A stretch of DNA of 64,000 nucleotides from contig JAUIAH010000002.1 in the NCBI GenBank assembly GCA_030425385.1, forward strand, positions 434,001 to 498,000, written 5' to 3'. Numbering within the stretch: position 1 is the first letter of the stretch; each line of letters begins with the position of its first letter. This document shows, one piece after another, positions 7,271-39,886 of the stretch. The notes under the pieces were generated by a model, which was not told the DNA's origin, did not search any database, and saw only the letters and a program-made list of their open reading frames with translations. Position numbers and translations under genes: made by a program. This DNA is from Verrucomicrobiia bacterium. GTDB taxonomy: Bacteria; Verrucomicrobiota; Verrucomicrobiia; Verrucomicrobiales; DEV007.

Positions 7271-10200
7271 ATGAACGCCCCCTACTTCTCCCCGCGGGCG
7301 CTGCGATGGCTTCTTCTAGGTCTCGGAATCAGCGCCAGCCCCCTGCAAGCGGCTACCGATGCCGAACCCACGTCGTTTCCTCAGTGGCAAGTGCACCATT
7401 TCGGCGGGACCACCGCCGAAGCCCTTACTGGTGCCGATCCCGATGATGACGGCCTTTCCAATCTCTTGGAGTATGCGCTAGGACTCAGCCCGCACGATTC
7501 TAACAGTTTCCCTTCCCAAGCGTGGCTGGAAGGGAATGTACCCCTCTTTGAACTTCAGCTCCCTGAGCCCGCCTTGCCGGATGTGCGCTACGAAATCCAG
7601 ACGTGCCTCGACCTCGACGAACATTCGTGGGGCTTGTTGGCCTGGCGCGATCCAGGATCGGCATGGGAAGGCCCTGGCAAAGTACTCACCGCAGAGCCAG
7701 GCGGTGGCCATCAGCTGCATTTCTTCATCGGTGACCCATTTGATGAACACCCGCGGTGTTTCTTCCGATTGGTTGTTGTGCACGTCCCCGAACTAGCAGA
7801 GACACAGGAGACGCAGGTGGCGGTTTCCGATCCAGAGCCCTCCTCAGGCACGGCTCAAGTGACCACCGCCTTCACCTCTCCCATGCAGGGCATGATGCCG
7901 AGGACCTTCACCCACGCCGTCTCCGCTTCCGGCACACTCGCCCCAGGAGATCTTCCCAAGGACGCCGTCGTCCTCATCCCTCCTGGCATGGAACTTGTCG
8001 TCGCCGATACCATCCACACCGGTGTCTTGGCCATCGCTGGCAAACTCACTGTCCAAAGTGGGGCTCGCCTCTTTGTCGAGACCATCCGTGTCATGCCTAC
8101 CGGCCATCTCGAGGCGCGCGGTGAAGACATCGTCTTCACCTTCTCCGGCACTCCTGACAGTGATGTCGAGGAAACCGGCGTCGGCATCGCCGCCAAGGGT
8201 CGCGTCGATTTGTTAGGCGATCGCCGCCCCACTCACAAAACGACTGCTTCCGGCGTGCGGGAGGGTTCCCGCTCTCTCGTGGTCGACGATGCCAGTGGCT
8301 GGCGCGTGGGCGATCAGTTAGCCTTCCCGGATCTTTCGGTGCTTTCTTTGGCCCGCTACAAGCTGAACGATGAGCCCTGGCTCTACGATGAGAAACAGTT
8401 AGAGATCAAACGCATCGCTGCTATCAATGGCAACCGCGTGAACTTGGATACGCCTCTTCGGTACGATCACCTCACCGATGGCGACTCGGGTCCGGTGGTG
8501 CATCTCACTCGCTCGATCCAACTTCGCACCTCGCCAGATAGCCCCGCCCGCGCTCATGGCATGTTCTCTGGTCGCGCTCGCATCCGTGGCGTCGAGTTCA
8601 TTGACATGGGCCGGACCACTGGCCATCCCATCGATCCAGAGGACAATGTCATCGGGCGTTACCCCTGTCATGCACACTACAACGCGGATTTCGAGTTTGA
8701 CTATGTCAGTGTCCACGCTTCCCAGGAAGATTGGATTGGCAGCGCTCGCCATGGCATCGTCCATCACAGCAGTGAGGGCAACGTGCGCAATTGTGTCGTC
8801 GTCAATGCCCAGAGTTCAGCCTTCTTCTTTGAAGACGGTGTCTTTGGCGGTGAGTGGACGGACAACGTCGCCATCTGCGGTGGCTCCATCTTCAACTATG
8901 AAGGTGACGATGGCCGCTTCGGTCCTTTCGAGGGCAGAGAGTTAGGCGTCGGTCCCTCGGCCTTCTGGTTGCGTGGGCACCAGGTGTCGATCGAACGCTG
9001 TGAGGCTTACGGCGTGGCCATCACGGCCTTTGCTAGCTTCGTCCATCATCGCTTCAACGAAGATGAGGATTCCAAGAAACGCTCCTTGCCCAAGTTCGAT
9101 CATTGTCAGGCTTATGGCTCCTTCATCACTGGCCTGGTCATGATCCAGTACAGCATGGACGCCCGCAATGTCCTCACCAACTTCCATGGAGTGAACCGCC
9201 TCCAGACCAAAGATGGGCGCGATGGCTGGGGCTTTGTCGTCATCCATGGCAATGAGTTCGTCCTGGAGAACTGCCATTTCATTGGCAACGGCGGCAACTA
9301 CGGCGCCCACGCCATCAATGGCCCCGATGGGAAACTCATTCTCAAGAACACCCGCTTCGACGGCTTTCGCGACACCTTCGGCGATTGGCCTGAGGGCGTC
9401 GAGGTCTTGAATGACTCGCCCACTCCAGATCCAGAACCCACTCCAGATCCAGAGCCCACTCCAGATCCAGAGCCCACTCCAGATCCAGAGCCCACTCCAG
9501 ATCCAGAACCCACTCCAGACCCAACTCCAGATCCAGAACCCACTCCAGATCCAGAACCCACTCCAGATCCAGAACCCACCCCAGATCCAGAGCCAACCCC
9601 AGATCCAGAGCCCACTCCAGATCCAGATCCAGAACCCACTCCAGATCCAGAGCCAACCCCAGATCCCACTCCAGATCCAGATCCCACTCCGTCAGGCACG
9701 GCTCAAGTGACCACCGCCTTCACCTCTCCCATGCAGGGCATGATGCCGGAGACCTTCACCCACGCCGTCTCCGCTTCCGGCACACTCGCCCCAGGAGATC
9801 TTCCTAAGGACGCCGTCGTCCTCATCCCTCCTGGCATGGAACTCGTCGTCGCCGATACCATCCACACCGGTGTCTTGGCCATCGCTGGCAAACTCACCGT
9901 CCAAAGTGGGGCTCGCCTCTTTGTCGAGACCATCCGCGTCATGCCTACCGGCCATCTCGAGGCGCGCGGTGAAGACATCGTCTTCACTTTCTCCGGCACT
10001 CCTGACAGTGATGTCGAGGAAACCGGCGTCGGCATCGCCGCCAAGGGTCGCGTCGATTTGTTAGGCGATCGCCGTCCCACTCACAAAACGACTGCTTCCG
10101 GCGTGCGGGAGGGTTCCCGCTCTCTCGTGGTCGACGATGCCAGTGGCTGGCGCGTGGGCGATCAGTTAGCCTTCCCGGATCTTTCGGTGCTTTCTTTGGC

Positions 10201-11263
10201 CCGCTACAAGCTGAACGATGAGCCCTGGCTCTACGATGAGAAACAGTTAGAGATCAAACGCATCGCTGCTATCAATGGCAACCGCGTGAACTTGGATACG
10301 CCTCTTCGGTACGATCACCTCACCGATGGCGACTCGGGTCCGGTGGTGCATCTCACTCGCTCGATCCAACTTCGCACCTCGCCAGATAGCCCCGCCCGCG
10401 CTCATGGCATGTTCTCTGGTCGCGCTCGCATCCGTGGCGTCGAGTTCATTGACATGGGCCGGACCACTGGCCATCCCATCGATCCAGAGGACAATGTCAT
10501 CGGGCGTTACCCCTGTCATGCACACTACAACGCGGATTTCGAGTTTGACTATGTCAGTGTCCACGCTTCCCAGGAAGATTGGATTGGCAGCGCTCGCCAT
10601 GGCATCGTCCATCACAGCAGTGAGGGCAACGTGCGCAATTGTGTCGTCGTCAATGCCCAGAGTTCAGCCTTCTTCTTTGAAGACGGTGTCTTTGGCGGTG
10701 AGTGGACGGACAACGTCGCCATCTGCGGTGGCTCCATCTTCAACTATGAAGGTGACGATGGCCGCTTCGGTCCTTTCGAGGGCAGAGAGTTAGGCGTCGG
10801 TCCCTCGGCCTTCTGGTTGCGTGGGCACCAGGTGTCGATCGAACGCTGTGAGGCTTACGGCGTGGCCATCACGGCCTTTGCTAGCTTCGTCCATCATCGC
10901 TTCAACGAAGATGAGGATTCCAAGAAACGTTCCTTACCCAAGTTCGATCATTGTCAGGCCTATGGCTCCTTCATCACCGGCTTGGTCATGATCCAGTACA
11001 GCATGGACGCCCGCAATGTCCTCACCAACTTCCATGGGGTGAACCGCCTCCAGACCAAAGATGGGCGTGATGGCTGGGGCTTTGTCGTCATCCATGGCAA
11101 TGAGTTCGTCCTGGAGAACTGCCATTTCATTGGCAACGGCGGCAACTACGGCGCCCACGCCATCAATGGCCCCGATGGGAAACTCATTCTTAAGAACACC
11201 CGCTTCGAAGGCTTTCGCGACACCTTCGGCGATTGGCCTGAGGGTGTCGAGGTCTTGGACTAA
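7271..11263 (+). CDS. secreted protein with two near-identical G8/beta-helix halves
   Basis: 1330 residues. A signal peptide (to about residue 28, [10 protein letters not shown]) precedes a segment with [19 protein letters not shown]. Residues 192-713 and 808-1329 are two copies of one unit that differ at only two residues (R/E in MMP-R/E-TF and D/E in NTRF-D/E-GF). Each unit starts with a G8-like region ([17 protein letters not shown], then [17 protein letters not shown], then [15 protein letters not shown]) and continues into a right-handed parallel beta-helix rich in H, N and G ([18 protein letters not shown]). A Pro/Thr/Asp/Glu linker joins them. G8 domains occur in the hyaluronan-degrading protein CEMIP and in bacterial secreted proteins, so an extracellular polysaccharide role is plausible but unproven. 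No cell-wall anchor follows the second unit, which ends at the stop codon. A perfect hairpin lies 67 bp downstream. Confidence 0.9.
7844..9409 (+). repeat. G8/beta-helix unit, copy 1 (1566 bp)
   Basis: Direct repeat of 9692-11257 with a constant offset of 1848 bp and no indels. By eye there are 18 nucleotide differences. All lie in the first 384 bp and the last 328 bp; the central 854 bp (8228-9081) are identical to copy 2. Only two of the changed codons alter the residue. Confidence 0.95.
9419..9691 (+). repeat. PTPDPEP linker repeat (coding)
   Basis: About 91 codons built from the units P-T-P-D-P-E and P-T-P-D, in DNA terms imperfect repeats of cactccagatccagaacc. It joins the two G8/beta-helix units as an extended acidic, proline-rich spacer. 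Such repeats are prone to slippage, so length variation between strains is likely, as are assembly errors. Confidence 0.95.
9692..11257 (+). repeat. G8/beta-helix unit, copy 2 (1566 bp)
   Basis: Second copy of the unit at 7844-9409; see that entry for the pattern of differences. The gene stops two codons after the copy ends. Confidence 0.95.
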
Positions 11264-38685: not shown

Positions 38686-39726
38686 TCACTCCAACCGCTC
38701 CCGCAGATCACGCAACGACCGCAACTCTCCCCAATCCCCACCGCGCATCTTCCGCCCACCATCCTTCCGCTTCGGCCCAAAGTACTCCCGCTTCGCCTCA
38801 AAGAACCCATCCACAAACCCTTTCGACCCAATCACCACCCCATCCGTGAAATAGCGCACCCGACACCGCAACAGCGCCGGCAACGACAGCTCCCCTCCTG
38901 CCTCACGCACCGCTGCCACCGCTTCCGCAGACGCCCCCTTCCGCACCACCTCTCCAGAAGCCGTCACCTGCGCCTCCCCCATCCCAAACAGCACTCGCCG
39001 ATACTCCCGACCCACCACGCGCCAATTCGGAATCGCCCGCCCCTCGCGCAACGCCTCCTCCTGCATCAGAAGACCCAACCCACGCCGCGCCGCCTGTTTC
39101 CCCGCCACCGCCTCCGCATACCCGCACCACCGATAATCCTTCGGATCCTCCACCATCCCCGCCCGCACCGCATTCAGATCCACATACCCCGCCACCGTCA
39201 TCAAGGCGTCCCAACCACCCTCAATCACCACACTCTTAAACCGCTGCTCCCAAAGCCGCCCCACCCGCTCATGACGCTTGTTGAACCACACCGTGAACCG
39301 CTGCAGCAAGGTCTTCATAAACTCCGAAAGATCATGCATCCGATTCACGAAATCCTGCCGATACGCCTTCTCCTGCACCACCGCCGTCGCGCCCCCATTC
39401 AGTTCATAAAACGAGGCAATTCGGGCCCGAATCGCATCCATCTCCTCCCGAGAATAAAGCGCACTCAACCGCGCCCAGAACTCTTCCTCCGGCAGCTCAT
39501 CCACCCCAATCGCCTCCGGCACCTGCAGCACCAAATGCAGGTGATTATCCAGCATCGTCCACGTCACCACGGTGACATTGGCAAAGCGCTCCACCTTCCG
39601 CAGCAGCGTCGCAAACCGCTCCTTCGCCTCCTCATCCAACAGGAAATGCCGCCCATTGATTCTGGAGATTACATGGAAGTATTGCCCGCCATCGGCAAGC
39701 ATCTGGAAACGTCGGGGGATAGCCAT
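38686..39726 (-). CDS. REP-associated-type Y1 transposase homologue
   Basis: 346 residues. The N-terminal half matches the TnpA_REP/Y1 family: FHVISRINGRHFLL, TVVTWTMLDNHLHLVLQVPE (the HxH of the HUH motif) and RVGRLWEQRFKSVVIEGG followed by AGYVDLNAVRAGMV and PKDYRWCGYAEAV. These enzymes cut and join single-stranded DNA with a catalytic tyrosine. In the block that usually reads (G/Q)RYKS, this protein has QRFKS, so the usual tyrosine may be absent or supplied elsewhere. The C-terminal third, about 120 residues beyond the core, is basic and may bind DNA. There are no flanking IS ends typical of mobile IS200; instead an 89-bp direct repeat covers the start codon. Such proteins are usually single-copy domesticated transposases. 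Confidence 0.85.
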   Translation of the reverse strand: MAIPRRFQMLADGGQYFHVISRINGRHFLLDEEAKERFATLLRKVERFANVTVVTWTMLDNHLHLVLQVPEAIGVDELPEEEFWARLSALYSREEMDAIRARIASFYELNGGATAVVQEKAYRQDFVNRMHDLSEFMKTLLQRFTVWFNKRHERVGRLWEQRFKSVVIEGGWDALMTVAGYVDLNAVRAGMVEDPKDYRWCGYAEAVAGKQAARRGLGLLMQEEALREGRAIPNWRVVGREYRRVLFGMGEAQVTASGEVVRKGASAEAVAAVREAGGELSLPALLRCRVRYFTDGVVIGSKGFVDGFFEAKREYFGPKRKDGGRKMRGGDWGELRSLRDLRERLE

Positions 39727-39792
39727 GGCTTTCTATAGCCTCCCCCCAACCACTCCGTCAACCCCTCTTCTAATAATAGCAGTGTCCAATAA
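39704..39792. repeat. 89-bp direct repeat, copy 1 (covers the transposase start codon)
   Basis: Identical to 39798-39886 except one C/T change (39739 versus 39833), with the five bases TAATA between. Copy 1 includes the first eight transposase codons and 66 bp upstream. Within it, AGCCATGGCT is a perfect 10-bp palindrome centred on the start codon, flanked by G- and C-runs (GGGGGAT, TCCCCCC) that could extend a stem. Confidence 0.9.
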
Positions 39793-39797
39793 TAATA

Positions 39798-39886
39798 TGG
39801 AAACGTCGGGGGATAGCCATGGCTTTCTATAGTCTCCCCCCAACCACTCCGTCAACCCCTCTTCTAATAATAGCAGTGTCCAATAA
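39798..39886. repeat. 89-bp direct repeat, copy 2 (upstream of the transposase)
   Basis: Second copy of 39704-39792. It contains a duplicate of the transposase start region, but its frame is not connected to the gene. It lies between the transposase and the rhodanese gene and may be a REP-like recognition sequence for this transposase. Confidence 0.9.

What the first reader, a model, noticed from the sequence alone, without database searches (positions are those of the whole stretch)
7844..11257. Two 98.9% identical 1.57-kb gene halves with an 854-bp block of perfect identity, suggesting gene conversion
By eye I count 18 differences over 1566 bp: 8 before 8228 and 10 after 9081, none between. 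Outside the block the divergence is about 2.5%, so about 21 changes would be expected inside it. Fifteen of 17 changed codons are synonymous, so both halves are under purifying selection. The simplest history is an old duplication, then recent homogenisation of the centre.
Basis: seen in the sequence. Interest (0 to 1): 0.6.

Follow-up and report, generated by a model that had tools for sequence, protein, structure and literature searches.

The report
Duplicated gene half with homogenised centre
A bacterial gene for a probably secreted beta-helix protein carries two copies of its main domain, and the middle of one copy seems to have been overwritten recently by the other, an ordinary kind of DNA self-copying that is nicely visible here.

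Summary
Copies 7844-9409 and 9692-11257 differ at 18 of 1566 bases, with none in an 854-bp block (8228-9081 = 10076-10929); the next largest spacing is 123. Chance gave such a block in 3 of 200,000 simulations.

Both copies lie in one 1330-aa ORF (7271-11263): signal-peptide-like start, 191-aa N-terminal part, G8/CEMIP-like domain, (PTPDPE)n linker, the same domain again. The syntenic gene of a congener has one domain, 59% identical, so the duplication looks lineage-specific. Fourfold sites are not significantly more conserved against the congener in the block than in the arms (24/92 v 15/70). Arm dS 0.093, centre 0.

In 2.84 of 8.01 Mb of this genome two other places show identical tracts (791, 692 bp), and an exact 2083-bp repeat is resolved, so simple repeat collapse is unlikely.

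Best reading: in-frame domain duplication, then recent gene conversion of the centre. Direction, exact recombination route and absence of assembly error cannot be settled without reads or strains. The process is known, for example among mycolactone PKS modules. Modest interest.

The parts
7271..11263 (+). Whole ORF, 1330 aa, with both copies in one frame
   Evidence: no internal stop or frameshift
7271..7843 (+). N-terminal region (191 aa): signal-peptide-like start ([27 protein letters not shown], judged by eye) and an [17 protein letters not shown] segment
   Evidence: no Pfam family at E<=10
7829..7840 (+). DPEP-coding 12-mer just before copy 1, identical to the core of the linker unit; proposed seed of the linker (inference)
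7844..9409 (+). Domain copy 1 (522 aa), G8/CEMIP-like beta-helix
8228..9081 (+). 854-bp block of perfect identity, copy 1
9410..9691 (+). Linker of 282 bp, imperfect 18-bp repeats coding PTPDPE units, in frame; stands where copy 2 has its stop codon
9692..11257 (+). Domain copy 2 (522 aa), followed by GAC TAA
10076..10929 (+). 854-bp block of perfect identity, copy 2

Best explanation
A gene for a probably secreted, single-domain G8/CEMIP-like right-handed beta-helix protein underwent an in-frame internal duplication in this lineage, and the two copies were joined by a Pro/Thr/Asp/Glu repeat linker that grew by slippage. Both copies then drifted, almost only at synonymous sites. More recently a homologous recombination event between the copies (gene conversion, presumably RecA-dependent; minimal tract 854 bp, limits 8227-9082) made the centre identical and left the two arms at 2.5% divergence. 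SHOWN: two copies in one ORF, the identical block, its improbability under even change, low dN/dS in the arms, a single-copy syntenic ortholog. INFERRED: that the agent was conversion, the RecA route, the linker's origin by slippage, secretion, the fold, and the protein's role (binding or cutting an extracellular polysaccharide). Direction of conversion: undetermined.
For: Block and statistics: (3 of 200,000 simulations; zero of 15 NG86 synonymous changes in a centre that holds 53% of the synonymous sites, binomial 1.2e-5). No sign of constraint: fourfold-site identity to the congener is 0.15 left, 0.26 centre, 0.31 right; centre 24/92 v arms 15/70, Fisher p 0.58. Timing: arms dS 0.093, centre 0 with a 95% upper bound of 0.0155, i.e. 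within about the last 17% of the arms' divergence if rates are equal. Duplication derived: G002 has one domain, between a reductase-like ORF and the sigma gene. Identical tracts elsewhere in the genome: C18 67231-68288 v 68974-70031, 791 bp, inside an SdrD_B repeat frame; C14 175690-178895 v C22 2042-5247, 692 bp, inside LamG paralogs that are 64-96% identical per 100 columns outside the roughly 1.1-kb 94-100% stretch that holds the tract (the short last bin left out). No third copy in the genome that could be a donor. Precedent: identical tracts inside near-identical mycolactone PKS modules, PMC2569948 (passages).
Against: No reads and no second strain: one draft assembly only. The identical block sits near the middle, with arms of 384 and 328 bp, the shape that a repeat-collapse or polishing error anchored in the flanks could also leave. 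The outgroup is saturated at synonymous sites, so the direction is unresolved (5 of 18 sites match copy 1, 5 copy 2, 8 neither). The chance figures assume evenly spread change. The C18 case may be a repeated block rather than a conversion, and the C14/C22 case lies near contig ends. A published median tract in M. tuberculosis is 101 bp (PMC13061034, passage), much shorter.
Confidence: 0.75

Rival explanations
1. Other homologous recombination: the array once held more copies, or two unequal crossovers (or imports from other strains into the arms) left two mosaic copies with a shared centre.
For: Same sequence outcome; the linker is built of 18-bp units with one 12-bp step, a sign of length instability. 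A gene of SdrD_B repeats in the same genome has a multi-domain block repeated at 97%.
Against: Needs two crossovers or two imports where one conversion suffices; no remnant of a third copy found.
Confidence: 0.12
2. Assembly or polishing artefact: the true copies differ in the centre but the consensus was collapsed there.
For: Near-central position of the block (arms 384 and 328 bp); the genome is a draft in 74 contigs; two of the three PF01609 transposase matches lie near contig ends (C18 435-986; C5 196178-196912 of 197557), as when repeats break contigs.
Against: An exact 2083-bp repeat is resolved with flanks on both sides in C48 and C4, provided C4 truly belongs to this genome. Differences about 50 bp apart would keep the copies apart in a k-mer graph (reasoning). 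The C18 tract is asymmetrical (arms 230 and 38 bp). ORF intact over 1330 codons; 17 of 18 differences are transitions with no indel.
Confidence: 0.1
3. Chance clustering of mutations, or nucleotide-level constraint on the centre.
For: The protein is more conserved in the centre (66% aa identity to the congener) than on the left (45%) or right (59%); fourfold identity in the centre (0.26) is above the left arm (0.15) though below the right (0.31).
Against: 15 of 17 changed codons are synonymous, so protein constraint matters little; 3 of 200,000 simulations; fourfold identity centre v pooled arms not significantly different, p 0.58.
Confidence: 0.02

Closest known systems
Gene conversion among modules of the mycolactone PKS genes (PMC2569948, passages read)
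   Different: Many modules over large plasmid genes, within and between genes, with strains compared; here two copies in one chromosomal gene of a single assembly
Gene conversion tracts between close paralogs in M. tuberculosis PE/PPE genes (PMC12046097, passages)
   Same: Intrachromosomal, non-reciprocal copying between close repeats; a tract shows as an exact match inside a diverged pair
   Different: Between separate genes, shown with long reads and strains, and there it adds variants to the target; PMC13061034 (passages) gives a median tract of 101 bp, much shorter than 854
TMEM2 ectodomain (PDB 8c6i) and CEMIP, G8 plus beta-helix proteins
   Same: The profile of alignment A3 matches 8c6i at E 6e-69; RYPxHxH and SGWxxGD motifs shared by all rows of A3
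   Different: Two domains in tandem with a linker; the window-plus-congener profile alone finds nothing in the PDB at E<=1; no activity known

Membership tests
Gene conversion tract between tandem paralogs | Block of identity longer than expected between paralogs that differ on both sides | tested here: met
Gene conversion tract between tandem paralogs | Non-reciprocal transfer: an unconverted relative shows the target's former sequence | not testable with these tools
   the only near ortholog found is single-copy and saturated at synonymous sites; no second strain held
Gene conversion tract between tandem paralogs | Not explained by local sequence constraint | tested here: met
   fourfold identity to G002 0.15 / 0.26 / 0.31 left / centre / right; centre 24/92 v arms 15/70, p 0.58
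Pfam G8 (PF10162) | Score at or above the gathering cut-off | tested here: not met
   15.0 bits for copy 1, 18.8 for the congener; cut-off 22.9; own-genome search for PF10162 0 of 1 at E<=0.001
Pfam CEMIP_beta-hel (PF24606) | Score at or above the gathering cut-off | tested here: inconclusive
   whole protein 33.9 bits v 27.3, presumably by summing two copies; one copy alone 20.5, congener 19.2
G8/CEMIP-like beta-helix superfamily (wider sense) | Linked by intermediate homologs to members over the cut-off or of known structure | tested here: met
   7 of 7 A3 members match G8 and CEMIP_beta-hel at E<=0.1, best 2.2e-28 and 1.4e-74; A3 profile v 8c6i E 6e-69, presumably driven by the four distant members
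G8/CEMIP-like beta-helix superfamily (wider sense) | Right-handed beta-helix fold | tested here: inconclusive
   two AlphaFold2 models of low confidence, mean pLDDT 41.2 and 47.2, mostly strands and coil
Hyaluronidase | Hyaluronan-degrading activity | not testable with these tools
   activity of TMEM2 itself is disputed (PMC10206443 v PMC10474455, passages)

The most novel reading that the evidence does not exclude
This lineage has an unusually active ectopic homogenisation process that copies tracts of about 0.7-0.9 kb between repeats in exported multi-domain proteins, so that surface domains evolve in concert: one tandem G8-like gene, one SdrD_B repeat gene and one LamG gene pair, found in about a third of the genome.
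Probability: 0.2. Interest if true: 0.45.

Novelty: new member of a known kind. Interest (0 to 1): 0.27.

Why it matters
It is a clear example, roughly datable, of likely gene conversion inside one bacterial gene: a tract with two sharp limits and differences kept on both sides. With identical tracts in two other places it makes this Verrucomicrobiales genome a usable place to measure homogenisation of exported proteins. It changes no principle; the process is known.

Tried and rejected
Nucleotide constraint in the centre: no support from fourfold sites against G002. Direction of conversion from G002: uninformative, 5 / 5 / 8 of 18 sites. A third donor copy: none in the genome (whose only other hit is an 83-bp linker-like match in C21; protein search, two matches, the two copies). 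More orthologs: 2 of 74 family genomes including the own one at E<=1e-20; 5 of 57 genomes including the own one at E<=1e-3, three of them distant; genome contigs, single-protein query 0 loci of 29 candidate stretches, alignment query 3 loci of 57, one the congener's record and two distant. G003, whose sigma protein is 85% identical, has an oxidoreductase-sigma junction without the gene; G001 gave no sigma match at E<=1e-40 and no domain match at E<=1e-3. Structure models too weak for a fold search, which I did not run. NCBIfam: no family at E<=0.001. The SdrD_B tract in congeners: no DNA match in 3 of 3 other genomes of the genus. 16S count (one) and transposase places did not by themselves settle the kind of assembly.

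Papers: listings seen; PMC6053082 abstract and outline only; passages of PMC9205934, PMC2569948, PMC12863079, PMC10206443, PMC10474455, PMC12046097, PMC13061034. PMC12863079 reports no sign of recent gene conversion among the giant surface-protein genes it studied. A search for 'G8 domain' with 'Verrucomicrobia' gave 0 papers.

Full report
WHAT IS THERE. Window 7271-11263 is one open reading frame of 1330 codons. It begins with a signal-peptide-like stretch (by eye) in an N-terminal region of 191 aa, followed by a 522-aa domain (7844-9409), a 282-bp linker of imperfect 18-bp repeats coding PTPDPE units (9410-9691), and the same domain again (9692-11257), then GAC TAA. The two domain copies differ at 18 of 1566 positions. 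Differences lie at 7901-8227 (8) and 9082-9397 (10), none in the 854 bp between. The next largest spacing between differences is 123. 17 of 18 are transitions, 15 of 17 changed codons are synonymous and there is no indel.

IS IT MORE THAN CHANCE? With 17 events placed on synonymous sites with transition weighting, 3 of 200,000 simulations gave an identical block of 854 bp or more; the analytic figure is 1.3e-5 for 18 events. The centre holds 53% of the synonymous sites and none of the 15 synonymous changes counted by the NG86 method (binomial 1.2e-5). These figures assume evenly spread change. Constraint on the nucleotide sequence was tested with the congener's ortholog: fourfold-site identity is 0.15 left (41 sites), 0.26 centre (92), 0.31 right (29). 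Centre against pooled arms is 24/92 v 15/70, Fisher p 0.58 (counts rebuilt from the rounded fractions), so there is no sign that the centre is specially conserved.

HISTORY. In G002, of the same genus, the gene between a reductase-like ORF and the sigma gene has one domain only (842 aa, domain 59% identical). The window's own neighbours are an ApbA-type reductase and an ECF-type sigma factor. G002's contig has the same length (18,146) as CALLLI010000021.1, an uncultured Verrucomicrobiales MAG, and is taken to be that record. In G003 the oxidoreductase ORF lies next to the sigma gene, without the reductase and the G8-like gene. Apart from G000 and G002, none of the 74 genomes of the family searched has the domain at E<=1e-20. 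So the duplication looks lineage-specific. A 12-base DPEP-coding sequence that matches the linker unit lies just before copy 1 (7829), and copy 1 runs into the linker where copy 2 has its stop codon (TTG AAT GAC TCG against TTG GAC TAA). I infer that seed plus domain were duplicated and the linker then grew by slippage.

Arms: dS 0.093, dN 0.0055, so dN/dS about 0.06; left 6 and right 9 synonymous changes, not significantly different (one-sided binomial 0.12). Centre: dS 0, 95% upper bound 0.0155. Both copies therefore seem to be kept by selection, and the centre was made identical within about the last 17% of the arms' divergence, if rates are equal. The direction is unknown, as G002 is saturated at synonymous sites (of 18 sites 5 match copy 1, 5 copy 2, 8 neither).

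IS IT AN ARTEFACT? I compared 2,844,573 of 8,006,327 bases of the genome with itself, 9,786 of them N. Of 194 rows in all, 44 have at least 300 bp and 88% identity (one pair appears twice). Three of the 44 have an identical block of 300 bp or more: this one; C18 67231-68288 v 68974-70031 (791 bp); and C48 238625-240943 v C4 2165-4482 (2083 bp). The last pair has flanks on both sides in both contigs, so this assembly passes exact repeats of 2 kb, provided that C4 belongs to it. Against this, two of the three PF01609 transposase matches lie near contig ends, and the near-central block with arms of 384 and 328 bp is also what a flank-anchored consensus error would leave. I put the artefact at 0.1.

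OTHER TRACTS. The C18 pair lies in a 2624-codon stop-to-stop frame rich in SdrD_B domains. Its tract is asymmetrical (arms 230 and 38 bp) and its neighbours are related repeats, so it may be a repeated block rather than a conversion. Below the 88% line, C14 175690-178895 v C22 2042-5247 (LamG/TSP3 paralogs, 85.6% overall; Pfam run on the C14 protein only) holds a 692-bp identical tract within about 1.1 kb of 94-100% identity, with 64-96% per 100 columns elsewhere, the short last bin left out. This is the usual look of interlocus conversion, though both lie near contig ends. Three further rows of the 44 have formal p below 1e-4 but blocks of only 176-283 bp.

WHAT THE PROTEIN IS. One copy alone is below the Pfam cut-offs for G8 (15.0 v 22.9 bits) and CEMIP_beta-hel (20.5 v 27.3); the whole protein passes the latter (33.9), presumably by summing two copies. 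An alignment of both copies with five homologs (G002, G012, G021, and two loci titled Meiothermus and Betaproteobacteria MAGs) shares RYPxHxH and SGWxxGD, and its profile finds the TMEM2 ectodomain 8c6i at E 6e-69, with two weak hits besides (0.014 and 0.17). That score is presumably driven by the distant members, since the profile of the window copies and G002 alone finds nothing at E<=1. So it is a divergent G8/CEMIP-like beta-helix protein, probably exported, probably acting on an extracellular polysaccharide; substrate and activity are unknown. Two AlphaFold2 models were of low confidence.

WHAT IS KNOWN. Gene conversion between near-identical modules of bacterial genes is established. [quoted passage not shown] tuberculosis (PMC12046097, passages). 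The present case is a new member of that kind.

Noticed in passing
G000 C18:67231-68288 and 68974-70031 (own genome, outside the window; L095): 97.3% repeat with a 791-bp identical block inside a 2624-codon frame rich in SdrD_B domains.
   Followed up: partly
G000 C14:175690-178895 and C22:2042-5247 (own genome; L166, L127): LamG/TSP3 paralogs, 85.6% identical overall, with a 692-bp identical tract: looks like interlocus gene conversion.
   Followed up: partly
G000 C48:238625-240943 and C4:2165-4482 (own genome): Segment of at least two ORFs present twice with 2083 bp of perfect identity inside a 2319-bp match; a recent duplication, if C4 belongs to this genome.
   Followed up: no
39701-39792 and 39795-39886: 92-bp direct repeat (98%) covering the start and upstream region of a Y1/IS200-like transposase ORF (38686-39726, minus strand), which belongs to a family of about 1-kb repeats at 93-96% in contigs C9 and C14, with a 333-340-bp piece at the end of C18.
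   Followed up: partly
L036:2362-4574 (G003): In a congener the oxidoreductase ORF directly neighbours the sigma gene; both the ApbA-like reductase and the G8-like gene are missing, so the two may have come or gone together.
   Followed up: no
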